Positions 16,111 to 37,604 of a stretch of DNA of 37,810 bases are shown in pieces. The DNA is taken from positions 1 to 37,810 of the IMG/VR virus record IMGVR_UViG_3300020215_000047; one strand, 5' to 3'. This stretch comes from a virus. Below the pieces are notes generated by a model that saw nothing but the letters and a program-made list of their open reading frames with translations, had not been told where the DNA came from and did no database searches. A program made the position numbers and the translations under genes. Every line of letters begins with the position of its first letter. The first letter of the stretch is position 1.

Positions 16111-17142
16111 ATGTTTCTTTTCAACCTATTAGTTAAATCAGTGCTTCGCATGTGCGTCATGACAGCATTTGATTTGACAGCGGTCAATGCTTCAACCCGC
16201 GCGAGAATCGAAAAGAAATGGCAAGACAACCTGAGTGTAAAAACCCCTCTGATGATGCGTTTCAAAGAAGAAGGTGGAATGCAGTTGATCGGCGGCGGTA
16301 CTGAACTCAGTTTTCCTGTTATTTCTGATGATGGCAACGCGGGAAGCTACCAGGGCGATGATATTTTGAATATCTCCCGTCCGGGTGGTTTGATTAAATT
16401 AACGTATAACTGGAAACAGTTCTATTCAACCGTCCGAATCGATGGCCTTGAAGAAATTCAAAACGCCGGAGAAGAGGAAGCGGCTTCCGTTTATGAAGGT
16501 CGTTTTGCGCAAGCTGAAACAACGACTATTAATAAATTCGAAGAAATGCTTTTCGGTGATGCGACTGGTAACCAGTCTAAGGATTGGAACGGTTTACGTG
16601 CTCTTGTGGCTGATGATCCGTCCACCGGCACTATTGGTGGTCAGTCTCGCGCTACAAACACGCAGCTTCGTAACCAAGCGAATACAACCGCCGTTACAGC
16701 TTTCAACACCTCGCAGAATGGACGCAGCGTACTCACCAATTTATACGCCTCTTGCGTTCAAGGAATTCGCAAACCGAATTTCATTTCCACGACACAGGCC
16801 ATTTGGGTTCTTTATAACCTTTCATTGACGTCTAATGAACGGTTTATTCCGGAGAATTCAAAGAAGCTTGCAAACGCTGGATTTGATGTTGTCGCGTTTA
16901 TGAATGCTCCTGTCACCATGTCGGCAAAATGCCCGGCCTCTCACTTGTACATGCTCCGCATTGCGAAGCCTAAGAGTGACGGCGGTATTTTCCTTCTTAT
17001 TTCTAAAGATCGTAACTTCAAACTAGGTAAGTTCATCGAACCGGCAGACCAAGATTTTATTGTTGCGAAGGTTTTGACGGCTGGCGAACTTGCCACCGAT
17101 GCCCCGTATTTACAGGGCGTCGCAACGAACATCACAGGTTAA
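16111..17142 (+). CDS. Major capsid protein (HK97-fold)
   Basis: The 343-residue product follows the pattern of coat proteins of this size class: an N-terminal segment, then GGTELSFPVISDD, RPGGLIKLTYNWKQFYS before residue 100, an E-loop-like NAGEEEA region, LFGDATGN and GLRALV, and a C-terminal strand-rich half ending near PYLQGVATNITG. Position after the scaffold and before a decoration-type gene agrees. Start ATG 16111 has AAGGG upstream, but internal ATG 16150 and 16159 would remove an unusual hydrophobic N terminus (MFLFNLLVKSVL). Confidence 0.8.
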   Translation: MFLFNLLVKSVLRMCVMTAFDLTAVNASTRARIEKKWQDNLSVKTPLMMRFKEEGGMQLIGGGTELSFPVISDDGNAGSYQGDDILNISRPGGLIKLTYNWKQFYSTVRIDGLEEIQNAGEEEAASVYEGRFAQAETTTINKFEEMLFGDATGNQSKDWNGLRALVADDPSTGTIGGQSRATNTQLRNQANTTAVTAFNTSQNGRSVLTNLYASCVQGIRKPNFISTTQAIWVLYNLSLTSNERFIPENSKKLANAGFDVVAFMNAPVTMSAKCPASHLYMLRIAKPKSDGGIFLLISKDRNFKLGKFIEPADQDFIVAKVLTAGELATDAPYLQGVATNITG

Positions 17143-17152
17143 GGAGAAAACC

Positions 17153-17662
17153 ATGAAAAAGATTATTTTTAGTCTTTTTGTTGTGTTCGCACTCCTTAGC
17201 GTTGCCAATCCTGCCCATGCTTTGCTTTGCAAATCCGGTCAGGCGGGTAACAGTGATGAGTGCTGGACTGAAGTAAAAGTATCTTCGGCAGAAACGAACG
17301 TCGTATCCGCTGGTGCGGTTCTTATGTACGACATTACGACTGATTCCGCAGATACGAATGCGTATCAGGTTGTTCTTACAACGGCTTCCCTTGATGCTCA
17401 CAGAGTTGCCGGTGTTGCCCAAAGCATAATTGCTACAGGCGATACAGGTTTAATTCTTGTGAAAGGAAAAGGAAAGTTGAACGTGCATGGAGTTACAGCG
17501 ACCGGCGACCGCGTCTTTACTAGCGCGAGCGAAGGACACGCGGGAACCACAATTCCTGCTATGGGCGCAACAAATACATCCTCGGGTGATCCGATTGGTT
17601 TTGCTTTGCAAAACTCAACGGCTGCTCGGGCGACGATTGATGCGTATATCAACGTAATCTAA
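17153..17662 (+). CDS. Capsid-decoration-like protein with signal peptide
   Basis: The product has 169 residues. Residues 1-23 form a textbook Sec signal (basic MKK, hydrophobic FSLFVVFALLSV, then PAHA with cleavage after Ala). The mature part is strand-rich: VSAGAVLMYD, RVAGVAQSI, TGDTGLILVKGKGKL, then repeated Gly/Thr/Ser turns. This resembles head-decoration proteins of the DUF2190 kind, which follow capsid genes. ATG 17153 follows AAGGAG. A terminator directly after it makes a scaffold-capsid-decoration unit. Export of a virion protein would be unusual. Confidence 0.6.
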   Translation: MKKIIFSLFVVFALLSVANPAHALLCKSGQAGNSDECWTEVKVSSAETNVVSAGAVLMYDITTDSADTNAYQVVLTTASLDAHRVAGVAQSIIATGDTGLILVKGKGKLNVHGVTATGDRVFTSASEGHAGTTIPAMGATNTSSGDPIGFALQNSTAARATIDAYINVI

Positions 17663-17708: not shown

Positions 17709-18902
17709 ATGAATATAGGAAACATAGTCACAAAAGGTTTAGAGAGAGCAAAGCTTCCGGTCGGTGATTTTGCCATGCGCGAAATGGCCGTTCAAATGCT
17801 CGATGAAATTATTCAAGAGCATTATGAATCAAAAAAATGGTCTTTTAGAAAAGGTGTTTTTATTCTTCCGGTAGGGTCAGGCATTGAAGAATACGCTTTA
17901 AGTAAATACGTTGCAAGCTGGAAAGACATTGTACCTCACACGATGCGCGGGTCAAATCCGGCGAGAAAATTACATTTTAAACCCTCACACGAATTCTATA
18001 AATCCCATGCTTACGACTTAGAAAGCGGAACTCCTTATCAATTCAGAGACGGAGAGTTAAGAGGCTTTCAAACACAAGTTTCCGCTGCTTCAACCATTTC
18101 TTTCGTGTCTTCTTTAACGAACTACACAACCGGAACTGTCTCTGTCATTTACGGTTCAATGAGAGTAGCGATTACAACCGGCTCGGTCACTTTAGACATG
18201 TTGGGACGTTGGTTCAGAGTGGGAACCGATGCGAAGCGTTACAAAATTACACAGATTGAATCATCGTCTGTTTTTTATATTCATGCACCCTATGAAGGCA
18301 CAACCAACGCAACGGCTTCTTTTGCGATTGGGGACGTACAACAAAAGGCATTAGTCTCTGGATTTTTAACGACAGGCGCTTTCCACGAAGAAGAAGTCCA
18401 ATTAAACGGCGCAACCTCTGTTTCTACGACGCTCACTTTTGCAACGATTACGAGAATTTCAAAGTCAGATAAAACGTATGGTTCAGTGACTGCTACTTCT
18501 AACGGTGGAATTATTACGAATGTTATTTTAGACCCAGGTGAAACAGAAGCGGATTTTTTTACCGTGAAAATGTATCCGATTCCCTCGGCAGCAGAAAATT
18601 TAGAATACGAAGCCTTAATCAGACACCCTTATTTATACCGGAATACCGATTCTCCTCTTTTTCCGAGTCAGTGGCATCCGTTTTTAGCTTTAGAACTTTA
18701 TATAAAACTAATGACCGAATGGCATGAGAAAGAAGTTTCTTTAGAAGTCATTCGACGCCGGGATAACTGGAAGAATGATTTATACGCCAATGACAATAAT
18801 TTTGATAACTGGGAAGTTTCCCAAGAAACAGAGTCTATTTCTTTGAGACAAAAAAGTAACAATCTTCCAAATATGTTTGATGTGTCTGATGACGACTTCT
18901 AA
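17709..18902 (+). CDS. Head-tail adaptor / neck protein
   Basis: The product has 397 residues. The N-terminal 40 residues (NIVTKGLERAKLP, then MLDEIIQEHYESKKWSF) follow the helical start of podovirus adaptor or tail-tube A proteins, which dock under the portal. A strand-rich insert of Thr/Ser/Gly repeats spans about 125-290, and the C terminus returns to helices (WHPFLALELYIKLMTEWHEKE). Position after the capsid genes agrees. It overlaps the next gene by 14 bases. Confidence 0.6.
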   Translation: MNIGNIVTKGLERAKLPVGDFAMREMAVQMLDEIIQEHYESKKWSFRKGVFILPVGSGIEEYALSKYVASWKDIVPHTMRGSNPARKLHFKPSHEFYKSHAYDLESGTPYQFRDGELRGFQTQVSAASTISFVSSLTNYTTGTVSVIYGSMRVAITTGSVTLDMLGRWFRVGTDAKRYKITQIESSSVFYIHAPYEGTTNATASFAIGDVQQKALVSGFLTTGAFHEEEVQLNGATSVSTTLTFATITRISKSDKTYGSVTATSNGGIITNVILDPGETEADFFTVKMYPIPSAAENLEYEALIRHPYLYRNTDSPLFPSQWHPFLALELYIKLMTEWHEKEVSLEVIRRRDNWKNDLYANDNNFDNWEVSQETESISLRQKSNNLPNMFDVSDDDF

Positions 18903-20055
18903 AGACATTTTTCATTATTTATTAGGGGCATTTTTGGCAGTGTCTACTTTCTTTTATCTTCCGAACCCTCCGAATATGTCCGTCCCGCAAGCGATGGAAA
19001 ATTTCTATAACATCCAAGAGCTTTTTATTCGGTACGGCATCATGGCTTTATTTGGAGTTTCTTTATTTATGAAGCCTGAACGGACGGCGACTTTAAAGAC
19101 TTTTGCCGGATTCTTTTTATACGTCTTAGGCATTAGCTCTTTTATCTCTTTTGACCTTCAGCAAAGACGCGCGATCTTAAATATTTTCTTAGGACTGGTT
19201 TTTTACAAAATGATTGTTGAACATTTTGACCGACGCTATTTAAAAGTCGTTTCCTTGGCGATCTTGGCCGTGATTGCGGGAAATATTTTATTTTCGATAG
19301 GCCAAATTTTTAATGTTGACCCCTTGTTCCGTCATACCTCGGATACGGTCGTCGGATTCCCTCGGCCTGTAGGGTTAATGAGGCTTGAAGCTCATTTAGG
19401 CACACTGGCGGCAATTACAGGCCCTCTTTTGATGATGATTCATCCGGTTTTAATCGTCACCGTACTCCCTTTATTATTTTGGGGAAGTGCCTCCGCTGCG
19501 GTCTTAGCCTTTGTCGTTTCGATGGGTTTTTTACTTTATCACCAATTAAATAAAAAAGTATTTTTCGTCCTCTTTGCTCTTTTAGCGGCAGCCGGTCTTT
19601 TCTATATCGTCAATTACGACATGCCGGGCGGCACGTTTGATTATCGTTTGAAGATTTGGTTTAAGTCTTTGCAAGCCGTCCTTCCTAGAAGTCCTTTTTA
19701 TGGGCTAGGGATTGGAAGCTTTGCCCGATGGAGTCCGCAATCGGCGCAAGCGACTAATGATTCGCCCTTAGTCTGGATTTGGGCGCATAACGAATATATT
19801 CAGTTACTTTTTGAGCTTGGAATTGTCGGAGTTTTCTTTTTTTGGAGATGGTTTAAAGAGCGTTTCCAAGATTTAAGGCGTTGCGTCAAAGACGTTCAAT
19901 TCCGATACGCCTTTGCCTCTTTTTTGGGTCTTTCAATCGTTTCCTTTTTCCATTTCCCATTTCATCTTGGCCGCTTGGCGGGTATCTCTCTTTTTTCAAT
20001 CGCCTTAGTCCATGCGCTTGCGTTAGATAACGAAAGGACAGTATGCGAATCTTAA
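18889..20055 (+). CDS. O-antigen ligase/polymerase-like membrane protein (Wzy_C type)
   Basis: The 388-residue polytopic protein has about ten to eleven membrane segments. Between the later segments is a long periplasmic-type loop with DYRLKIWFKSLQAVLPRSP, FYGLGIGSF and then AHNEYIQLLFELGIVG, the hallmark of WaaL/Wzy_C enzymes, which attach or polymerise O-antigen on lipid carriers. Start choices are TTG 18877, ATG 18880 or ATG 18889; none has a clear ribosome site. It sits within the tail operon, so it is probably made late. A role in changing host surface polysaccharide is inferred from the family. Confidence 0.75.
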   Translation: MTTSKDIFHYLLGAFLAVSTFFYLPNPPNMSVPQAMENFYNIQELFIRYGIMALFGVSLFMKPERTATLKTFAGFFLYVLGISSFISFDLQQRRAILNIFLGLVFYKMIVEHFDRRYLKVVSLAILAVIAGNILFSIGQIFNVDPLFRHTSDTVVGFPRPVGLMRLEAHLGTLAAITGPLLMMIHPVLIVTVLPLLFWGSASAAVLAFVVSMGFLLYHQLNKKVFFVLFALLAAAGLFYIVNYDMPGGTFDYRLKIWFKSLQAVLPRSPFYGLGIGSFARWSPQSAQATNDSPLVWIWAHNEYIQLLFELGIVGVFFFWRWFKERFQDLRRCVKDVQFRYAFASFLGLSIVSFFHFPFHLGRLAGISLFSIALVHALALDNERTVCES

Positions 20056-20342
20056 TTGCTCTTATTTTATTTTACTCTTTTGTAGCCTCCGTTTTTGCAT
20101 GGCCTGTCCCTGCTCCTAGTTCCAAATTTATAGCCTCTCAGGACATTATTGCGACCTCTTCCGATAGTCACGCAATAGGTTCTAGTTCTGTTTTTTGGAG
20201 AAGCACATTCTCAAGAAATCTTTATTTACCGGAACGGGCAGAAGCCCCTTCTGTAATCGCAAGTTTTGGCGTGGTATGGGCCTCAACAGATAACCACGTT
20301 TATTTTAGAAACGATGCAGGAACCACTACGAGACTCAGCTAA
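20043..20342 (+). CDS. Small fibre-like protein with signal peptide
   Basis: This 99-residue protein begins with a Sec-type signal (MRILIALILFYSFVASVFA) and ends with VWASTDNHVYFRNDAGTTT, a motif common at the C-terminal ends of phage tail fibre modules. AAAGGA precedes ATG 20043. It overlaps the ligase-like gene by 13 bases and its stop touches the next ATG. It is probably a tail-associated structural protein. Confidence 0.55.
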   Translation: MRILIALILFYSFVASVFAWPVPAPSSKFIASQDIIATSSDSHAIGSSSVFWRSTFSRNLYLPERAEAPSVIASFGVVWASTDNHVYFRNDAGTTTRLS

Positions 20343-21886
20343 TGAAAGAAATCTATACCCCTGTAGGCGGGATTAATTTAAGGCTTCCCCCCTGGCATAA
20401 AGACATGATGACCAGAAAGCAATGTGTGTCTTTACGGAATTTAAGGGTGAACGATGAAGTGATCGAATCTATCTTAGGGACTAAGAAATTTCAAAGCACC
20501 TCTTTAGGCTCAGACCCTATAACAGCCTTGATGCCTTATTACAATGATCAGACGGATGATTATGCTTTACTCATTGCTTCTGGAAAAACGATTTATAAAA
20601 AGAATGAACAAACAAATGAATTCGATATTTTAAGGTCTGGTTTAAGTTCTAACAGTATTTTTTCGTCGGCAATTCGTCACGGCATTTTGTACATAGCTTC
20701 GACTAAAGACGGATTAAAAAAATATTCTGGCGGAGCGATTATTGAAGATGTTGGCGCAAACGATACCGCAGCCGGTTCTTTTAGACAGATTTTATATGTG
20801 AAAGAAGTCGATCGATTATTCGGAATTTCAGAAGATGCGATTTTTGGCCAAATTTCATGGTGTGACGCTTCCGAGCCTGAAATATGGGACGCTCTTAACG
20901 TTGACCGACTTAAATTAAAAGACGGTGAAAAGGTCGAAGGCGCTGAAGTCCTCTATGGAAAGATCGTCATTTTCTGCACGTACTCTGTTTGGATTTATTA
21001 CATCCAAGGAAATGAAGAAAACTGGAAATTAGAAGAAGCCCCCACCACCATCGGATGTGTAGCGCCGAACACTATTAAAAAAGTGGGAAGTGAAATCTGG
21101 TACTTTGGAGAGTCCCCGAAACATCAATTAGGAATTTATGCTTTTAATGGGTCAACGTCCCGCCTCCTTACGGATGACATTAGCCCACTTTTTGACCGAG
21201 CGAATAAAAATAAGCTCCGAAACGCTTGTGCGGAACTTCATTCCGATCTTTATACAATTTCCTGGGCCGATGGCTTCTCGGAATTAAATGATATCTCGGT
21301 CGACCTAGACACTTTATCTAATAAAGAAGATGGAACGCCGGCGATTTACGGGCCGCATGACATAGCCTTTTATTCTTCCGCTGTCTTAAACAACCGTCAG
21401 TACAGTAAACAATTTTTAATGGGCGACCAATCCGACGGATTTGTCTACATGGAAGGTGGGTCTACTTTAAAAAGTATTAACGGAATTGACGGCTCTTTAT
21501 TACAGGCTCAGTTTAAGTCGATGGTTCACAATGAAGGAAGCTTTGATATCACGAAATTATACGAATCGATTCATATTTATTTTAGACCGCGCTCCTTTTT
21601 TCAACCGCGTTTAAGACTTTATTTTTCTTACGGAAACTACGCCGAAAATCTTGCACTCGATACGACCGTTTTAACTCAAGGGGACTATAACGTTTATGAA
21701 AATAGAGTTTTAGGCTCACCAGAACTTTATCATCATATCGAGTTTCCTGGCATGAGAGGGCAAGGCACTTCTCTACAAATCGAAATCATTAATGACGTAT
21801 TAGCTCAAAGACTCGCCATTGAAGGCTACAACTACAAATCAAAGGACTTACATGTCAACCATAAAGCACAAATTTACGCGAATTAG
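20342..21886 (+). CDS. Tail/stabilisation protein, beta-propeller-like
   Basis: The product has 514 residues. It starts PVGGINLRLPPWH and CVSLRNLRV, then shows repeated four-strand blocks (ALLIASGKTIYKK, GILYIASTKDGLKKYSG, EIWYFGESPKHQLGIYAF). This layout is found in short-tail proteins such as the packaged-DNA stabilisation or tube B proteins that close the tail below the adaptor. No signal peptide is present, unlike its neighbours. The 3' end overlaps the next gene by 35 bases. Confidence 0.6.
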   Translation: MKEIYTPVGGINLRLPPWHKDMMTRKQCVSLRNLRVNDEVIESILGTKKFQSTSLGSDPITALMPYYNDQTDDYALLIASGKTIYKKNEQTNEFDILRSGLSSNSIFSSAIRHGILYIASTKDGLKKYSGGAIIEDVGANDTAAGSFRQILYVKEVDRLFGISEDAIFGQISWCDASEPEIWDALNVDRLKLKDGEKVEGAEVLYGKIVIFCTYSVWIYYIQGNEENWKLEEAPTTIGCVAPNTIKKVGSEIWYFGESPKHQLGIYAFNGSTSRLLTDDISPLFDRANKNKLRNACAELHSDLYTISWADGFSELNDISVDLDTLSNKEDGTPAIYGPHDIAFYSSAVLNNRQYSKQFLMGDQSDGFVYMEGGSTLKSINGIDGSLLQAQFKSMVHNEGSFDITKLYESIHIYFRPRSFFQPRLRLYFSYGNYAENLALDTTVLTQGDYNVYENRVLGSPELYHHIEFPGMRGQGTSLQIEIINDVLAQRLAIEGYNYKSKDLHVNHKAQIYAN

Positions 21887-23243
21887 TCTATTCATTACTA
21901 TCCTTATCATGTCATTGATAGTCAAAAACTATCATTTATTTGCGGCGGTTACGTCTTACGATAATACGTTTGTCGCCAATGACCAATATTCGAGCGATTT
22001 TCATACCAGACTAAACGCGAATTTTTCCAAGTCTTTAACGGGCGGTATCAATAGCATTTCGAGTGCAAATATTGTCGATGGCACTTTAGCTTCCGGCGAT
22101 TTTTCAACCGCAGTCAGTCCGATCACAAGAACCGCCGAGGGCGCGGCTTGCGAGTATGTTTATACAGGTCTTATTCCAGCGACTTCCGCGAGCCTTACCA
22201 GTAACATTTCAGCTGGGACAGCGTATCCGAAAGGCTACCGTTGCGAAAAGACCTCTGCCACTTCTAAAACCTATACAGCCTCCCGCTGGACTTATGTAGA
22301 CATTGACCAAAATTGTGACTTTCAATATTCAGCGGTCACGATTGGCGCGGCGACTCCTTCGGTTGCGTCTAATGCAATCCGAATTGCGAGAGTTTCAACA
22401 GATGCCACAACGATTAATACTGTTTCAGATTTAAGAACCACTTCATGTGCTGATGGGCCATTTTCAAATATTAAAGATGACTCGACCGGGGCAACCTTAG
22501 ATGATCTTTTAAAATACGGTCGTCAGAACAGGCCTTATTCCTTGGCGGGAAATAATCCCGTTGGTTATGTCTCAGGCTTAACCGTTTCTTGGGACACTCA
22601 TACGACTTTTAAAGTCTTGTCTGGTGCTGCTTATATTGGTGGAGAATACAGAAGAGTTTCTACGGATATTACCGTAACCACTGGAAACGACAACCCGGCC
22701 GACGGGACTTCTGGACTTGATACGTCCTCAATCGCGGCAAATACAAATTATCACGTCTACGCCGTAGCCGATCAAGCAGACGTAGCCACTTATTCTATTA
22801 GCTATTCCACAACAAACGGCACACCGACCGGAGTAACCACAGCGAGAAAAATAGGCTCGATACGAACGGATGCCAACTCTCTTTTTACTTCAACGGATAT
22901 CGTTTCAACCCATGCAATCAGACAAGAAGAGTTAATTTCTGGAATGGTGCGTTTTGATGGTTCAGCGTCCGCGATTAATAACTCCATTACTGGAAGATAT
23001 AACGTCTCGCTTCTCACAGATAATGGGACAGGAGATTACACCGTTGGCTGGAATAATGACTTTCAGACCACAAATTACGCAGTAAGTATCGAATGCGACC
23101 AGGGCGGCGGGAGTGGTGGAAATGCTAGAACCTTTACTTCAGGCGTCGGAACTCTTCAATTTATTACAACTGCTAATAATGCAGACTCCGCAGCGGATTG
23201 TGCAAACATCCACGTTTTAGCGGTCGGAAATAGGACGGAATAA
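21852..23243 (+). CDS. Tail fibre/collar-like protein with signal sequence
   Basis: The 463-residue product starts at ATG 21852 after AAAGGA (21841-21846). Residues about 10-31 are a hydrophobic signal (ISLFITILIMSLIV) ending LFA before AVTSYDN. The mature chain is Ser/Thr/Ala-rich with repeated strands: YTASRWTYVDIDQNCDF, then RIARVSTD and NTVSDLRT, patterns frequent in phage fibre and baseplate-periphery proteins. The C terminus is GWNNDFQTTNYAVSIECD, again fibre-like. Likely role: tail appendage or receptor binding. Confidence 0.6.
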   Translation: MSTIKHKFTRISLFITILIMSLIVKNYHLFAAVTSYDNTFVANDQYSSDFHTRLNANFSKSLTGGINSISSANIVDGTLASGDFSTAVSPITRTAEGAACEYVYTGLIPATSASLTSNISAGTAYPKGYRCEKTSATSKTYTASRWTYVDIDQNCDFQYSAVTIGAATPSVASNAIRIARVSTDATTINTVSDLRTTSCADGPFSNIKDDSTGATLDDLLKYGRQNRPYSLAGNNPVGYVSGLTVSWDTHTTFKVLSGAAYIGGEYRRVSTDITVTTGNDNPADGTSGLDTSSIAANTNYHVYAVADQADVATYSISYSTTNGTPTGVTTARKIGSIRTDANSLFTSTDIVSTHAIRQEELISGMVRFDGSASAINNSITGRYNVSLLTDNGTGDYTVGWNNDFQTTNYAVSIECDQGGGSGGNARTFTSGVGTLQFITTANNADSAADCANIHVLAVGNRTE

Positions 23244-23244
23244 T

Positions 23245-23646
23245 ATGAATAAAACCCTTATTTTAATCGTTGCAATTTATTTAGTCATTCTTAGTTTTGT
23301 TTTCCCTTCTTTCGCGGATGAAATCTTTGCCGTCGAAAAGCCGGATGGGAGCTTAGCGATTCATTATTACTTAGGCGGCGGGAAGTCTTTAGAAAAGACA
23401 TTAGAGCAGGTCGGCTTTAGCGGTTATCCCATTCACAGGATCACCGAAAGAGACTTACCGGCTTCAAGAGCCGACCGAAAATATTGGAAATGGTCAAATG
23501 GACGAATTGAAATCGATACCGTTAAAAAAGCCGTAGATATTCAAAAAGAAAATGAAAAGATTCAAAAAAAAGAAGCGGTTCTAACTAAATTAAAAATTGA
23601 TGATGAAGAATTAAAATCTTTGAAATACGCCTTGGACAAAATATGA
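23245..23646 (+). CDS. Tail-associated protein with signal peptide
   Basis: The 133-residue product begins with a Sec signal ending FPSFA before DEIFA. The middle has RITERDLPASRADRKYWKW, the DLPxxRxxRxxW motif seen in small phage proteins encoded after fibre genes. The last 40 residues are a charged helix. It overlaps the next gene by ATGA. Confidence 0.55.
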   Translation: MNKTLILIVAIYLVILSFVFPSFADEIFAVEKPDGSLAIHYYLGGGKSLEKTLEQVGFSGYPIHRITERDLPASRADRKYWKWSNGRIEIDTVKKAVDIQKENEKIQKKEAVLTKLKIDDEELKSLKYALDKI

Positions 23647-29258: not shown

Positions 29259-29552
29259 ATGAGCATAGAACAAGCAATGAAGAAAGTTAGGGAGGGACGG
29301 GGAACCGATAACGATCATTTCGTATCTGTCTTTTCTACCGATCTTCTTTTGACTCAGGCAATCGCCTATGACGCCCAAGGCAGAACCGAATATATCGGTT
29401 ACGCGCAACCCGGAACGGCGCAAGCTGCGGCGGGGTGGTGCATTAAAAAATTAAGTTACGATGTAAACGGAGTCACCGACATTCAATTTGCTAACGGAGA
29501 AGCTAAATTTATAAACATTTGGGACGACAGAGCAGGACTTTCATACTCATAA
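29259..29552 (+). CDS. Fibre-associated structural protein
   Basis: This 97-residue product has a pattern common in phage tail regions: NDHFVSVFSTDLLLTQ, AYDAQGRTEYIGYAQPGT and then FANGEAKFINIWDDRAGL. It probably attaches to or precedes the fibre encoded next. AGGAGAA precedes ATG 29259. TAATG joins it to the following gene. Confidence 0.6.
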   Translation: MSIEQAMKKVREGRGTDNDHFVSVFSTDLLLTQAIAYDAQGRTEYIGYAQPGTAQAAAGWCIKKLSYDVNGVTDIQFANGEAKFINIWDDRAGLSYS

Positions 29553-32020
29553 TGAAAAAACTATCTATCTTTTTACTCGCGCTTTTTCTTTCGACGAATG
29601 CTTTTGCAGCATACCGAGAAGTTTTTAATCCTCACACTGGAAAACTGGACAAAGTCGGCGTCAGTGAAGTGTCAAAAGACGTTACGACAACCGATTGCTC
29701 AAACGGGCAGATTTTAAAATATAACGGGGCCATTTGGGCGTGTGCTTCCGATCAGACCGGGGCAGCAGGTTCGACTTTCACAGTAAAAGAGGACGATGCG
29801 AGTAAAGATACATCCACTTCTGTTTTAGATTTTGGGACTGGTATGGATGCAACTTCAAATCCGGCCGGAGAAATTAACGTTTCCCTTGACGCTTCAGAAT
29901 TAACGTCGGACGCCCAGGTATTTTATAACAATGGCGGCGCTTTTGGCGGGGATGCTCAATTTACCTTTGACGATGTTAATGACGTTGTCTCGATAGGCCA
30001 CGCAACAACCGCCAATACAAATACCCCTCTGGTCGTGTCTCGGCGTGGCGGTTCTAATAACATGATTTACGCTATGAACATGCGCAGAGATGTTACTGAT
30101 ATTACAGACGGCGGTGGTATTGGAATTCTAGGATCGTCTCAGACGTTTAATTTGGGGGCGATTCAATTTGGAAGCACAAATGTTGCCGGGCAAGATGGGA
30201 GAGTTAGAATTTTACCGACGAATAACGGCGGTTTGGTAAGTGGCCTTTTTTCCATTGATGAAAACGGTGTTCAAATCATGGGGAATGGCGACCCAAGCGC
30301 ACCTCTTGAATTAGGGCATAGTGCGGGATTAACACCGATTGTTATAGAGGGAACCGCAGATGACGGCTTTGAAACAACACTTGCTTTCGGTGAACCCGCT
30401 GTATCCGATAAACAAATTACGTTTTTTAATGCTACCGACACGGTTTTAGGAAGAGACACGACAGACACACTTACAAATAAAACTCTTTCTGCTTCAAACA
30501 ATGTCATAGAAGCCGATTCCTTAAAAGATGCAGATCACGGCGAGTTTACTTGCGCGAGTGCTTCCTGCACGATTGACAATGATGTCGTTTCAAATGACGA
30601 AGTAGCACCCCAGGCAGTTTCTACAGATCAAATCCAGGCTTCAAACAAACCTACGGACGGAATGCTTTTGACTTACAACGGCGCTTCCTTAAAAGCTCAG
30701 TGGAAAACTTGTACTGAAGTCACTGGCGCAGCGGGTTTATGCGACGGCAATGATGCTTCCGGCGGCGGTGGTGGAACTCAAGTTATCGAAGATTACTTAA
30801 TAGATGTTACAGCAAACGGCGGTGTTTCTTTTGACTCCACAGAAGTTTCTAAAGATACAACTTGGAGCAATGGAACTTTAGGAGCGTATAAGAATATTTA
30901 TCATTTAGGCGGTGGGGCGCAAGCTATGACCGTCCGAGGAACCGGATTCGATTTTTCTGGAAGTGTCACGGTTTCTTCCGATTTAACCATTACCGGCGAC
31001 AACATAGAAGCGACCACAGAAACAGACCGCTTTGTCTTTATGGCAAATGGAAGTACTTATGCTCCTGAAGCAATCGATTTAGGAACAGATACGGCTGGAA
31101 ATTACGCGGCCTCTAATTCAGAAGGTGGAGATGCAACGGGTATCGCCGCAAATACAGTCGTGGCGGCTGATATTGCTAATGGAGATCACGGAGATTTTAC
31201 CTATTCTTCAAACGTGGCGGCTTTAGATGCTAACGTAGTCTCTGCCGATGAAATCGCAGTTCAATCCGTAACGCCGTCCGATTTAGAAGCTTCGGATACT
31301 TTAGCGAATCTTGAAATCCCAACTTACAATTCCACTTCTGGAAAGTTTCAGTGGAAAACATGTGCAGAAATTACAGGCGCAGCGGGATTGTGTGACGGTT
31401 CAGATGACGGCGGGGCTGGAGGCGGGGACAATATAACCGTTAATGGCGCAGCGGCTACCGATGCAAACTTTGCAGAGGGTTCTGGAATTGATATCAATTT
31501 AAACACAGGAGCTACGCCGGACGACGTAACGATTACGCAAAAGTTTGTTTGGCGTCCCGAAGTTCAATCAGCAAAGCTTCCTCTTTTAAATCCTGCACAA
31601 ATTGATGCTGGAGAATCTAATTTTAGACTTCTTTTTGATGCTTCGACGCCGGAAAGAGTCTCTTTAGATACAGTTATCGCGCCTTATCAGGGCGGCCCCT
31701 TGGCGATTGACTTCTTTTATTCAATGGCATCCGCTACGACTAACCGAATTGCTTTTGCGGCTTTTGTCGAATGTATTACATCCGGCGATTCGGTAGACAC
31801 AAATGCGGGAAGTTACGACGGTATCAATTCTGCGTGGCAAGCCGTCCCAGGGACAGCGGGACACATGAATAAATTAACGATGACTTTAGGGCCTTCCACG
31901 ATCGATTCATGCGCTGAAAATGATCGTTTTAGATTGATGGTTTCAAGAGACACAGCAAGCGCAGATGATACCGCAACCGGAGATTTAGAACTTTTAGAAA
32001 TGAGAGTTTATGAAGTTTAA
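29552..32020 (+). CDS. Large tail fibre protein with signal peptide
   Basis: The 822-residue product starts at ATG 29552, sharing one base with the previous stop. Residues 1-19 form a Sec signal (MKKLSIFLLALFLSTNAFA), followed by YREVFNPHTGKLDKVG, a fibre N-terminal motif. The body has strand-rich repeats and phrases such as FNATDTVLGRDTTDTLTNKTL, typical of phage fibres. A module of about 85 residues is duplicated: DHGEFT...WKTCTEVTGAAGLCDG and DHGDFT...WKTCAEITGAAGLCDG, each followed by a Gly-rich linker. The C-terminal 150 residues may be the receptor-binding head. Confidence 0.7.
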   Translation: MKKLSIFLLALFLSTNAFAAYREVFNPHTGKLDKVGVSEVSKDVTTTDCSNGQILKYNGAIWACASDQTGAAGSTFTVKEDDASKDTSTSVLDFGTGMDATSNPAGEINVSLDASELTSDAQVFYNNGGAFGGDAQFTFDDVNDVVSIGHATTANTNTPLVVSRRGGSNNMIYAMNMRRDVTDITDGGGIGILGSSQTFNLGAIQFGSTNVAGQDGRVRILPTNNGGLVSGLFSIDENGVQIMGNGDPSAPLELGHSAGLTPIVIEGTADDGFETTLAFGEPAVSDKQITFFNATDTVLGRDTTDTLTNKTLSASNNVIEADSLKDADHGEFTCASASCTIDNDVVSNDEVAPQAVSTDQIQASNKPTDGMLLTYNGASLKAQWKTCTEVTGAAGLCDGNDASGGGGGTQVIEDYLIDVTANGGVSFDSTEVSKDTTWSNGTLGAYKNIYHLGGGAQAMTVRGTGFDFSGSVTVSSDLTITGDNIEATTETDRFVFMANGSTYAPEAIDLGTDTAGNYAASNSEGGDATGIAANTVVAADIANGDHGDFTYSSNVAALDANVVSADEIAVQSVTPSDLEASDTLANLEIPTYNSTSGKFQWKTCAEITGAAGLCDGSDDGGAGGGDNITVNGAAATDANFAEGSGIDINLNTGATPDDVTITQKFVWRPEVQSAKLPLLNPAQIDAGESNFRLLFDASTPERVSLDTVIAPYQGGPLAIDFFYSMASATTNRIAFAAFVECITSGDSVDTNAGSYDGINSAWQAVPGTAGHMNKLTMTLGPSTIDSCAENDRFRLMVSRDTASADDTATGDLELLEMRVYEV

Positions 32021-32786
32021 GGCGCTTTTACTTTCAATTCTATTATTGGCGAGTCCCGCGAATGCAGGAGTTTTATTTGACGGGACAAATGATTGCCTTT
32101 CGTCTGCGTCTACTATTGCTTTCGGAACAAACATCGTTACTGTTTCATTCTGGATGTATTGGGATTCCTTTGCTAATGATGACGATTTAGCAATGGAATT
32201 GAGTGCTAATTATAATACGAACTTTCCCGGATTACTCATTGATCCAAATGCGTCTGCCCCTGTGTCAGGTAGGTTTAACGCTGGAATAAGTGCAACAGGC
32301 CCTACATACAGAACAGAATCTATTACCCGTCCTTCAGCCGCTGTTTGGCATCATTACTCTATCGTTTTTGATAACTCTACTGCGGCGGGAGATATTAAAT
32401 TCTATGTCGATGGTGTAAGTACATCTACCACTGTAGATGCCAACAGTAAAACCACAACCGGAAATATCAGAACAGACACACTCTATTTTATGTCCCGCGC
32501 CTGTACGAGTTTATATGCGGACGGAAGATTAGATGAAGTTTACATTCATTCAGGGGAATTAAGCGCCGACGAAATATCGCTTCTGTACAACTCTAGAATG
32601 AGAAAAATTGGTCAACAAATCGACAACACACTTATTTCTTACTGGCCTTTGGATGAATGTCCAGACGGGACAGCATGTGCAACCGCTTCGATGTTTAGAG
32701 ATAATTATGATACCGATCCAGATCATCTTTCGCCAAGCAACTCACCAACAGGCAGAGCAGGAGAAATTTTATCTTATGCACCTTAA
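32010..32786 (+). CDS. LamG/lectin-like protein with signal peptide
   Basis: The 258-residue product has a Sec signal ending PANA before GVLFDGTNDC. The mature part is a concanavalin-like (LamG) jelly-roll: TVSFWMYW, AAVWHHYSIVFD, IKFYVDGVS and ADGRLDEVYIHSGELSADEI. Such domains bind glycans. It overlaps the fibre gene by 11 bases, so it is probably a host-recognition partner or receptor-binding tip. The next gene begins 11 bases before its end. Confidence 0.7.
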   Translation: MKFKALLLSILLLASPANAGVLFDGTNDCLSSASTIAFGTNIVTVSFWMYWDSFANDDDLAMELSANYNTNFPGLLIDPNASAPVSGRFNAGISATGPTYRTESITRPSAAVWHHYSIVFDNSTAAGDIKFYVDGVSTSTTVDANSKTTTGNIRTDTLYFMSRACTSLYADGRLDEVYIHSGELSADEISLLYNSRMRKIGQQIDNTLISYWPLDECPDGTACATASMFRDNYDTDPDHLSPSNSPTGRAGEILSYAP

Positions 32787-33315
32787 ACTTTTAATCCTAT
32801 TTTTACTCATTTCTTCGACTTCTTACGCAGAAGATTTTGTTTGTCCCGATTCCTCATATCTAAAATCGGCGTCTCAATCTAATTGTTCCGCAGTTCCGGA
32901 TAATTTAGTTCCTTCTCAAAGAGACATAGCAGACAAAGTTCCTCAGAAGTACCGAAAAGTAGTCAGTAACCTTTTAGAAGAAATGACGCAAGCGGAAAAA
33001 GATGCGGTAGACGCGCAAGAAATTTCAACCGCAGCGGCCGTTCTATTAAGCACCTCAAGAGCCGGGGCAAAAGATAGCGTCGATCAATTATCGTCAGAGG
33101 GTGTAAGGCTTCGCGCGGCACTTCTTGTGATACTGGATCGTTTCAATTTAGTAACGGAACGAATTGACGCGATTGAGAATTGTATCGAAGCAAACTCGAC
33201 GGTTGCAAACATTAGGACATGTGTTTCAAATTTAGCACCCGTTTTGGGACAGGCAACAGCAACACAAATGAAAAACGCTATCAAAACAAAGATTGACGGT
33301 GGATTAGCTGATTAA
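32776..33315 (+). CDS. Exported helical protein
   Basis: The 179-residue product starts at ATG 32776 and carries a signal peptide (LKLLILFLLISSTSYA) before EDFVCPDSS. The mature chain is helical and Ala-rich, with the Cys pair region ENCIEAN and IRTCVSNL near residues 130-150. No family is recognised. It ends the fibre operon, before a branched hairpin region. Confidence 0.5.
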   Translation: MHLKLLILFLLISSTSYAEDFVCPDSSYLKSASQSNCSAVPDNLVPSQRDIADKVPQKYRKVVSNLLEEMTQAEKDAVDAQEISTAAAVLLSTSRAGAKDSVDQLSSEGVRLRAALLVILDRFNLVTERIDAIENCIEANSTVANIRTCVSNLAPVLGQATATQMKNAIKTKIDGGLAD

Positions 33316-33452: not shown

Positions 33453-33704
33453 ATGAAAAAAATAGCATTCTTAATCGCCCTATTGCTAATTGCAGGAAAC
33501 GCTTACGCCGGAGGAAAACAGCCTACACCTTTCGCCAAAGATTTGAAAAAAGGTGACGACGCTTGCCATAAGCAATACGGAAAAGTCGCTGATGGCGAGA
33601 AGCAAGCTGATGATCTTCGTATTTGCAAAGAAAAAGCCTATGACAATGCCTACTTGAAACATTTCGGCAAATATCCAGACAACGTTACAAGAGACTGGCG
33701 CTAA
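33453..33704 (+). CDS. Small exported protein
   Basis: The 83-residue chain has a signal peptide (MKKIAFLIALLLIAGNAYA) and a charged mature part with two Cys (DDACHKQ, LRICKEK) that may form a disulphide. CGGAGAA precedes ATG 33453. It opens the lysis-region operon. The function is unknown. Confidence 0.55.
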   Translation: MKKIAFLIALLLIAGNAYAGGKQPTPFAKDLKKGDDACHKQYGKVADGEKQADDLRICKEKAYDNAYLKHFGKYPDNVTRDWR

Positions 33705-36495: not shown

Positions 36496-36701
36496 TTCAA
36501 AAATCTTCTATTCTTAGTCTCTTATCTAATATACTCTGTACTTTCCTATATCAAACCTCGTCCCCACAAAAATAAGGTTTACCTTTTCTAGGGTGTGAAA
36601 TAGAATCACGCGCCGTTTTTAGCCTAGGGAGCGAAAAAAACGATGAATTAACGGGCACAAAAAACTTTTTTAATGTTTAAATTTGTGTCGTGGAGACACC
36701 T
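36496..36701 (+). other. Intergenic region upstream of integrase
   Basis: This A/T-rich gap of about 200 bases holds no gene. It contains CGTTTTT (36617-36623 region) facing AAAAACG across a short loop with CCTAGG, and several TATA-like stretches. It may carry the integrase promoter or arm-type binding sites; I could not fix a promoter or a repeated arm sequence. Confidence 0.4.
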
Positions 36702-37604
36702 TTGATTAGTAAGGATCTGGAACCAATTTTTGAGAAATTCGCTCACTTTCTCATATATCAACGTAATTTGAAGCCGACGTCGGCAACCTCATATCTTAGA
36801 GAAATTGAAAAACTGCAAGACTTTATAAAAGTCGATGTAAGGCAAATAAAAAACTACGCAGAATTTTCTGAGCTTCTTATTAAGTATAGGGTAGAGCAAG
36901 AGCTTTCAGACCGATCGATATACAAAGTAGCATCGATGGTGAAAGTCTATTTCGATTTTCTGGCCATGCACGAATATGTCAACTCACCTCATTTCCTTTC
37001 TATGGGGCATGGCTTTAAAAAGGGGAAAGGCGAAGAACCGCAGTTTTTTGACAGGGACGAAGATAAATCGGTTATCGATAAAATTCTTTGGAATCCTTAT
37101 ATAACCCTGCGCGACCGCTGTATCTTGTTTCTTCTTTACTCAACAGGCCTTCGACGTTCGGAGCTTTGCGGCCTCAACCTCAGTGACATTGATACAGAAA
37201 AGAGGTGGGTACACGTTAGAAAGACGGTCGGCAAGGGTGACAAATGGCGCTATGTGCCCTATGACGAAATAACGTCCATGTGGCTTTCATTATATATAAC
37301 AAGTCTCCATAAATTTAACCAGATAGGCAAAAGCGACCATCCATTATTTTTGACCGTTAAAGGCGACAGGATGACGCCTCAAGGCGTCTGGAAGCTCCTG
37401 AACAATATGGGCCGCTCCTTGGGCGTCAAAATGAACCCGCACAAATGGAGGCATTCTTTAGCCTCTTTTTTGACCCAAAAGGAGGACATATCCTATGCCG
37501 CCGAGGTTATGGGGCATGACGATATCCAGACTACTAAGCAATACGTCCATTTTAAGCCTGCCACAGTAAAAAAAATCTACGATAGACTAACCGCATCAAG
37601 CTAG
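36702..37604 (+). CDS. int: Tyrosine recombinase (phage integrase)
   Basis: The 300-residue protein has an N-terminal SAM-like core-binding domain (LIYQRNLKPTSATSYLREIE) and a catalytic domain with TGLRRSELCGL (first Arg), KGDKWRYVPY (Lys), PHKWRHSLAS (His-x-x-Arg) and MGHDDIQTTKQYVHF (His and nucleophilic Tyr). This complete R-K-H-R-H-Y set suggests an active XerC/D-sized enzyme. TTG 36702 with GGAG six bases upstream is favoured; GTG 36690 is an alternative without a ribosome site. The tRNA-derived site lies about 470 bases downstream on the circle. Confidence 0.9.
   Translation: MISKDLEPIFEKFAHFLIYQRNLKPTSATSYLREIEKLQDFIKVDVRQIKNYAEFSELLIKYRVEQELSDRSIYKVASMVKVYFDFLAMHEYVNSPHFLSMGHGFKKGKGEEPQFFDRDEDKSVIDKILWNPYITLRDRCILFLLYSTGLRRSELCGLNLSDIDTEKRWVHVRKTVGKGDKWRYVPYDEITSMWLSLYITSLHKFNQIGKSDHPLFLTVKGDRMTPQGVWKLLNNMGRSLGVKMNPHKWRHSLASFLTQKEDISYAAEVMGHDDIQTTKQYVHFKPATVKKIYDRLTASS

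What the first reader, a model, noticed from the sequence alone, without database searches (positions are those of the whole stretch)
18889..20055. O-antigen-ligase-like gene inside the tail operon
A WaaL/Wzy_C-type membrane protein with the HNEYIQLLFELGIVG signature lies between neck and tail genes, same strand, no promoter of its own. Phage serotype-conversion genes usually sit by the integrase and act in lysogens; a late-expressed one points to surface change during lytic growth, or to a role in preventing released virions from sticking to debris.
Basis: partly seen in the sequence, partly recalled or inferred. Interest (0 to 1): 0.65.

Follow-up and report, generated by a model that had tools for sequence, protein, structure and literature searches.

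The report
Late phage sugar-ligase with exported proteins
An uncultivated group of tailed phages carries, as a fixed part of its particle-building operon, an apparently intact enzyme that transfers sugar chains outside the inner membrane, next to capsid-coat and fibre genes that unexpectedly carry export signals, so these phages may sugar-coat their own exported particle proteins or the dying host's surface.

Summary
ORF 18889-20055 encodes a 388-aa membrane protein with Pfam Wzy_C (E=1.9e-12), intact catalytic-type Arg253 and His300, overlapping both neighbours in the late operon. It is a core gene, not a recent insertion: all 8 distinct related phage contigs covering the region carry it (plus one partial), beside capsid and neck genes. 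Reference phages with related capsids lack it, and 50,697 phage records hold only one short weak match.

The unexpected part is its company. In this lineage late structural proteins carry textbook Sec signal peptides (30 of 210 genes, against 0 of 242 in reference phages). They include the protein right after the capsid gene, whose predicted fold matches capsid decoration proteins (phi29 gp8.5, HFTV1, Pam3, TW1, T1). Cysteines in the exported set are mostly even-numbered, as expected for disulfide-bonded proteins.

Best mechanism: a periplasmic glycan ligase that O-glycosylates exported decoration and fibre proteins (about 0.4). Main rivals: late LPS modification (about 0.32) and an O-antigen polymerase (about 0.1). 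Sequence cannot settle the acceptor: PglL_A is absent, and WaaL and PglL are not separable by simple similarity. Host unknown; signal peptides were called with a home-made rule, not SignalP.

The parts
18889..20055 (+). Wzy_C (WaaL/O-OTase superfamily) membrane glycan ligase, 388 aa
   Evidence: Pfam E=1.9e-12; PDB profile hit 7TPG/7TPJ WaaL E=2.2e-5; about 12 helices in the AF2 model
19645..19647 (+). codon of invariant Arg253 (R-x-K-I/V-W segment)
   Evidence: alignment of 7 homologs; aligns with the Arg of WaaL
19786..19830 (+). His300 motif HNEYIQLLFELGIVG
16111..17142 (+). major capsid protein
   Evidence: phrog_9953 E=5e-48
17153..17662 (+). capsid decoration-fold protein with Sec signal peptide (MKKIIFSLFVVFALLSVANPAHA) and a Cys pair
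   Evidence: signal peptide, Shine-Dalgarno before the leader ATG, Cys pair in 10 of 11 homologs, first 23 PDB fold matches are phage capsid decoration or head-fibre proteins, two at E<=1e-3 (model pLDDT 68.6)
17709..18902 (+). neck-type protein
   Evidence: position and conservation in relatives; only weak PHROG matches
20043..20342 (+). 99-aa fibre-like protein with signal peptide
   Evidence: longer signal-peptide protein at the same place in L008, L010, L012
20342..21886 (+). head-closure/stabilisation-type protein
   Evidence: phrog_3287 E=7.7e-11, phrog_578 Hc3 E=3.6e-5
21852..23243 (+). fibre-like protein with signal peptide and Mtd-like domain
   Evidence: PF21916 E=7e-5, just under its cut-off; signal peptide
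23245..23646 (+). 133-aa protein with signal peptide
29552..32020 (+). large fibre-like protein with signal peptide
   Evidence: local match to a Pelagibacter phage baseplate protein
32010..32786 (+). LamG-domain protein with signal peptide
   Evidence: PF13385 E=1.7e-17
32776..33315 (+). protein with apparent signal peptide (MHLKLLILFLLISSTSYA)
   Evidence: read directly from the ORF
33453..33704 (+). 83-aa protein with signal peptide

Best explanation
SHOWN: an apparently intact inner-membrane glycan ligase of the WaaL/O-OTase superfamily is a fixed member of the late structural operon in an uncultivated tailed-phage lineage, in which a capsid decoration-fold protein and several fibre-like proteins carry predicted Sec signal peptides. 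INFERRED: late in infection the phage sends these proteins through the host Sec system into the periplasm. There the co-expressed ligase transfers a host undecaprenyl-pyrophosphate-linked glycan onto them, acting as a protein O-oligosaccharyltransferase. The processed, disulfide-bonded, glycosylated proteins join the capsids when the membranes break at lysis, where the glycans could mask or stabilise the virion or keep it off debris.
For: Wzy_C in all 7 full-length homologs tested with invariant Arg253, Trp257, His300. Present in 8 of 8 covering relatives plus a partial, overlapping at least one structural gene in all seven measured. Signal peptides in 30 of 210 lineage genes against 0 of 242 reference genes, with Shine-Dalgarno sites before the decoration leader in 11 of 11. 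Decoration fold of the exported protein after the capsid gene. Even cysteine numbers 21:2 against 29:27. Protein O-OTases often sit beside their exported acceptor, 21 of 31 in PMC3643930.
Against: No PglL_A motif. Reported phage Wzy_C enzymes are seroconversion polymerases (PMC4815439). Ligase-like genes in YPHTV-1 and in an Oligoflexales MAG contig occur without signal-peptide structural proteins nearby. Ser/Thr content is not diagnostic. Capsids are filled in the cytoplasm, so a periplasmic decoration protein can meet them only at lysis. Host unknown.
Confidence: 0.4

Rival explanations
1. Late LPS ligase: the enzyme joins an O-antigen or other lipid-linked glycan to lipid A-core (or diverts it) during lytic growth, so that progeny do not re-adsorb to the cell or its debris and superinfecting phages are shut out. 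Exported fibre proteins could help by masking receptors.
For: The only solved relative is WaaL. In YPHTV-1 an annotated O-antigen ligase sits beside an O-acetyltransferase gene in the tail region. A relative sits between a lipoprotein and an endolysin-like gene in a MAG contig. Late-operon position.
Against: Does not by itself explain why capsid decoration-fold proteins are exported in the same operon. No other LPS or glycan gene was recognised in the window.
Confidence: 0.32
2. O-antigen polymerase: a Wzy-type enzyme that changes the linkage or length of the host O-antigen, as in the D3 and epsilon15 seroconversion units.
For: The epsilon15 Wzy-beta is reported to carry a Wzy_C domain (PMC4815439).
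Against: No companion polymerase inhibitor was recognised; the gene is embedded in the structural operon rather than in a conversion unit; the only PDB relative is a ligase.
Confidence: 0.1
3. Lysogenic conversion gene acting in the prophage state that happens to lie in the late operon.
For: The window carries a tyrosine recombinase at 36690-37604. The ligase diverges faster than the capsid protein (window to L010 37% against 66%).
Against: Overlaps late genes and has no own promoter-like site; universal in the lineage; 16 kb from the integrase.
Confidence: 0.05

Closest known systems
WaaL O-antigen ligases (Cupriavidus metallidurans 7TPG/7TPJ; E. coli WaaL)
   Same: Wzy_C domain, Arg and His segments aligned, about 12 helices with a large loop between helices 9 and 10
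   Different: Encoded in a phage structural operon, not an LPS locus; acceptor unknown; very low overall similarity
PglL/PilO-type protein O-oligosaccharyltransferases
   Same: Same PF04932 superfamily; gene lies among genes for exported proteins of the same operon, the arrangement reported for many O-OTases (PMC3643930)
   Different: No PglL_A motif; no acceptor shown
Phage Wzy-beta of D3 and epsilon15 seroconversion units
   Same: Phage-encoded membrane enzyme acting on lipid-linked glycan; epsilon15 protein reported to carry Wzy_C (PMC4815439)
   Different: Those act in lysogenic conversion with an inhibitor of the host polymerase; this gene is in the late structural operon
Halomonas phage YPHTV-1 'O-antigen ligase'
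   Same: Annotated O-antigen ligase in a phage tail region; short match 32.5% over 80 aa
   Different: Different phage type, next to an O-acetyltransferase gene, no strong signal peptides
Myxococcus phage Mx8 / Stenotrophomonas phage BUCT555
   Same: Related capsid protein (about 31-33% identity) and similar gene order
   Different: No ligase and no strong signal-peptide structural proteins found

Membership tests
PF04932 Wzy_C superfamily | Curated domain match above cut-off | tested here: met
   47.6 bits against 31.7 for the window protein; all 7 members match
PF04932 Wzy_C superfamily | Conserved Arg and His in the large periplasmic loop | tested here: met
   Arg253 and His300 invariant in 7 homologs; loop between helices 9 and 10
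WaaL O-antigen ligase | Overall fold like 7TPG | tested here: inconclusive
   Profile match E=2.2e-5, but Foldseek found no significant match
WaaL O-antigen ligase | Gene in an LPS biosynthesis locus | tested here: not met
   Phage structural operon
WaaL O-antigen ligase | Transfers O-antigen to lipid A-core | not testable with these tools
   Needs biochemistry
PglL protein O-OTase | PglL_A motif (PF15864) | tested here: not met
   No match in 7 homologs nor in the phage records
PglL protein O-OTase | Often adjacent to a gene for an exported acceptor protein | tested here: met
   Signal-peptide decoration and fibre-like genes flank it; that they are acceptors is not shown
Phage seroconversion cassette | Conversion unit with companion genes, expressed in the lysogen | tested here: not met
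   Embedded in and overlapping the structural operon, 16 kb from the integrase gene; expression itself not testable
Phage capsid decoration protein (for 17153-17662) | Decoration/cement fold, gene right after the capsid gene | tested here: met
   phi29 gp8.5 E=1.1e-4, then HFTV1, Pam3, TW1, T1 capsid proteins; position. Model confidence moderate

The most novel reading that the evidence does not exclude
A tailed-phage lineage exports its capsid decoration and receptor-binding fibre proteins through Sec into the periplasm, where a phage-encoded O-oligosaccharyltransferase decorates them with host lipid-linked glycan; virions are completed, disulfide-bonded and glycosylated only when lysis mixes the compartments.
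Probability: 0.3. Interest if true: 0.93.

Novelty: new variant of a known kind. Interest (0 to 1): 0.7.

Why it matters
Tailed phages are thought to build their particles in the cytoplasm. A lineage whose decoration and fibre proteins carry conserved export signals, with a co-conserved periplasmic glycan ligase in the same operon, either challenges that picture or points to a new receptor-masking strategy. Both readings are testable with a few cloned genes in laboratory E. coli. It also shows that phage genes annotated 'O-antigen ligase' need not be lysogenic conversion genes.

Tried and rejected
Foldseek of the ligase model gave no significant PDB or viral match, so superfamily membership rests on profiles. 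Ser/Thr enrichment of the exported proteins was dropped as evidence because fibre proteins of control phages are equally rich. Host search: the single GTDB scan found only a 29%-identical capsid gene in an Oligoflexales MAG, whose fetched stretch lacks the signal peptides and the ligase, so no host is claimed; no tRNA in the window. A translation start downstream of the signal peptide was rejected for the decoration gene: Shine-Dalgarno sites precede the leader ATG in all 11. Recent insertion was rejected: 8 of 8 covering relatives plus one partial. A swap of the L003 ligase was considered because its position differs; the tree test does not reject the capsid grouping (AU p=0.40). Inverted ends of L015 and L016 look like assembly artefacts; L006, L009 and L016 end too early to tell. 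One decoration alignment was too diverse to scan with; a narrower one gave no new contig. Paper searches found no report of signal peptides on tailed-phage decoration proteins or of a phage-encoded OTase; subscription journals and preprints are not covered. NCBIfam and PHROGs gave no match to the ligase.

Full report
WHAT IS THERE. The window is an IMG/VR virus record of 37,810 bases. The ORF with ATG at 18889 encodes 388 aa. Pfam assigns Wzy_C (PF04932, 'O-Antigen ligase') at E=1.9e-12, above the curated cut-off; PHROGs and NCBIfam have no match. The His motif HNEYIQLLFELGIVG is at 19786-19830 and its pattern occurs in no other ORF of the window. A profile of seven phage homologs finds one relative among all solved structures, the Cupriavidus WaaL (7TPG/7TPJ, E=2.2e-5), with the R-x-K-I-W and H-N-D/E segments aligned. 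The same two segments align with E. coli WaaL, weakly. An AlphaFold2 model (pTM 0.81, pLDDT 75) is consistent with about 12 membrane helices and a large loop between helices 9 and 10 that holds Arg253 and His300. Charge distribution puts that loop on the periplasmic side (my reading). Foldseek did not reach significance, so the assignment rests on profiles, not on structure comparison.

IT IS A CORE GENE. IMG/VR scans with the capsid protein and the ligase brought in relatives whose capsid proteins are 28-66% identical to the window's. Every distinct contig that covers the region carries the ligase: window (=L002), L003, L008, L010, L011, L012, L032 and the outlier L013 (=L014, 99.9% identical), plus a partial copy on the inverted end of L015. 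All seven full-length homologs tested match Wzy_C; Arg253, Trp257 and His300 are invariant. In all seven phages measured the ligase gene overlaps at least one neighbouring gene, and no plus-strand promoter-like site lies near it. The order is MCP - decoration - neck - ligase - signal-peptide protein in window, L008, L010, L011, L012 and L032, and MCP - decoration - ligase - neck in L003 and L013. Ligase trees agree with capsid and portal trees at the supported forks and do not reject the capsid grouping (AU p=0.40). The ligase diverges faster than the capsid protein (window to L010: 37% against 66%). Among 50,697 phage records the window protein finds only a short weak match in Halomonas phage YPHTV-1, and the L012 homolog finds none. 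Capsid relatives such as Mx8 and BUCT555 have a similar gene order without it.

THE COMPANY IT KEEPS. Reading the neighbours showed leaders such as MKKIIFSLFVVFALLSVANPAHA at the start of structural proteins. A uniform rule (charged n-region, hydrophobic core, A-x-A-type site) found strong signal peptides in 30 of 210 genes of the lineage and in 0 of 242 genes of nine reference stretches. The rule is home-made, not SignalP, and the reference set is small, but the leaders are textbook, and the decoration genes have Shine-Dalgarno sites before the leader ATG in all 11 members. Two further checks support export. The decoration protein has a Cys pair in 10 of 11 members. Cysteine numbers of the predicted mature proteins are even 21 times and odd twice, against 29:27 for other proteins (p=8e-4; 12:2, p=0.03 without the decoration family). 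Homologs are not independent observations, so these p-values are guides only. The protein after the capsid gene, modelled without its leader, has as its first 23 PDB matches phage capsid decoration, stabilising or head-fibre proteins (phi29 gp8.5 E=1.1e-4, then HFTV1, Pam3, TW1, T1, lambda D; only two matches reach E<=0.001). The model is of moderate confidence (pLDDT 68.6). Another signal-peptide protein (21852-23243) resembles the second domain of the Mtd receptor-binding protein (E=7e-5, just under the cut-off), and another has a LamG domain.

HOW IT MOST LIKELY WORKS. The active site is predicted on the periplasmic side, where lipid-linked glycans are displayed and where the phage appears to send its own late proteins. 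Schulz et al. (PMC3643930) report that protein O-OTases cannot be told from WaaL by simple sequence comparison and that 21 of 31 candidates sit beside or near genes for their presumed exported acceptor. By that logic, glycosylation of the exported decoration and fibre proteins is my leading mechanism (about 0.4). Shown: enzyme family, intact residues, conservation, gene overlap, leaders, decoration-like fold. Inferred: late expression, export, glycan transfer, and joining of the exported proteins to capsids at lysis. The last step is the weakest, since capsids are filled in the cytoplasm.

RIVALS. Late LPS modification (about 0.32) fits the WaaL resemblance, the YPHTV-1 ligase beside an O-acetyltransferase gene, and a relative that lies between a lipoprotein and an endolysin-like gene on a short contig of an Oligoflexales MAG (E=3.9e-20). 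Exported receptor-binding-like proteins could serve the same end by masking receptors. An O-antigen polymerase is possible because the epsilon15 Wzy-beta is reported to carry Wzy_C (PMC4815439). PglL membership is not claimed, because PglL_A is absent. WaaL membership is not claimed either, because the gene is not in an LPS locus and the acceptor is unknown.

VERDICT. The gene is a new variant of a known kind: a phage-encoded Wzy_C ligase fixed in a late structural operon. The apparently exported decoration and fibre proteins are the more surprising discovery. I found no published precedent in the library searched, a search with clear gaps.

Noticed in passing
window:17153-33704 and L003, L008, L010-L013, L032: Late structural proteins of this lineage, including a capsid decoration-fold protein and fibres, begin with textbook Sec signal peptides; reference phages with related capsids have none. 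Perhaps the more important finding.
   Followed up: yes
L013:11624-13453: In the distant relative even the head-closure/stabilisation-type protein has a signal peptide, which the window homolog (20342-21886) lacks.
   Followed up: partly
L045/L049 (G001:C216): Another phage-like contig, binned in an Oligoflexales MAG, has a Wzy_C-like gene overlapping a lipoprotein gene and an endolysin-like gene, suggesting phage ligases in lysis cassettes too.
   Followed up: partly
L004:19239-21567 (Halomonas phage YPHTV-1): An annotated O-antigen ligase followed by an OatA-type acyltransferase gene in the tail region of a cultured phage.
   Followed up: partly
window:34369-34696: Two overlapping small genes, the second a predicted lipoprotein (LSTGC), look like a spanin pair and suggest a diderm host.
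   Followed up: no
window:36690-37604: Tyrosine recombinase of the XerC/D or integrase type at the end of the window.
   Followed up: no
L015:3067-3675 and L016:5062-5475: Short IMG/VR contigs with part of the same operon inverted at one end, probably assembly artefacts.
   Followed up: no
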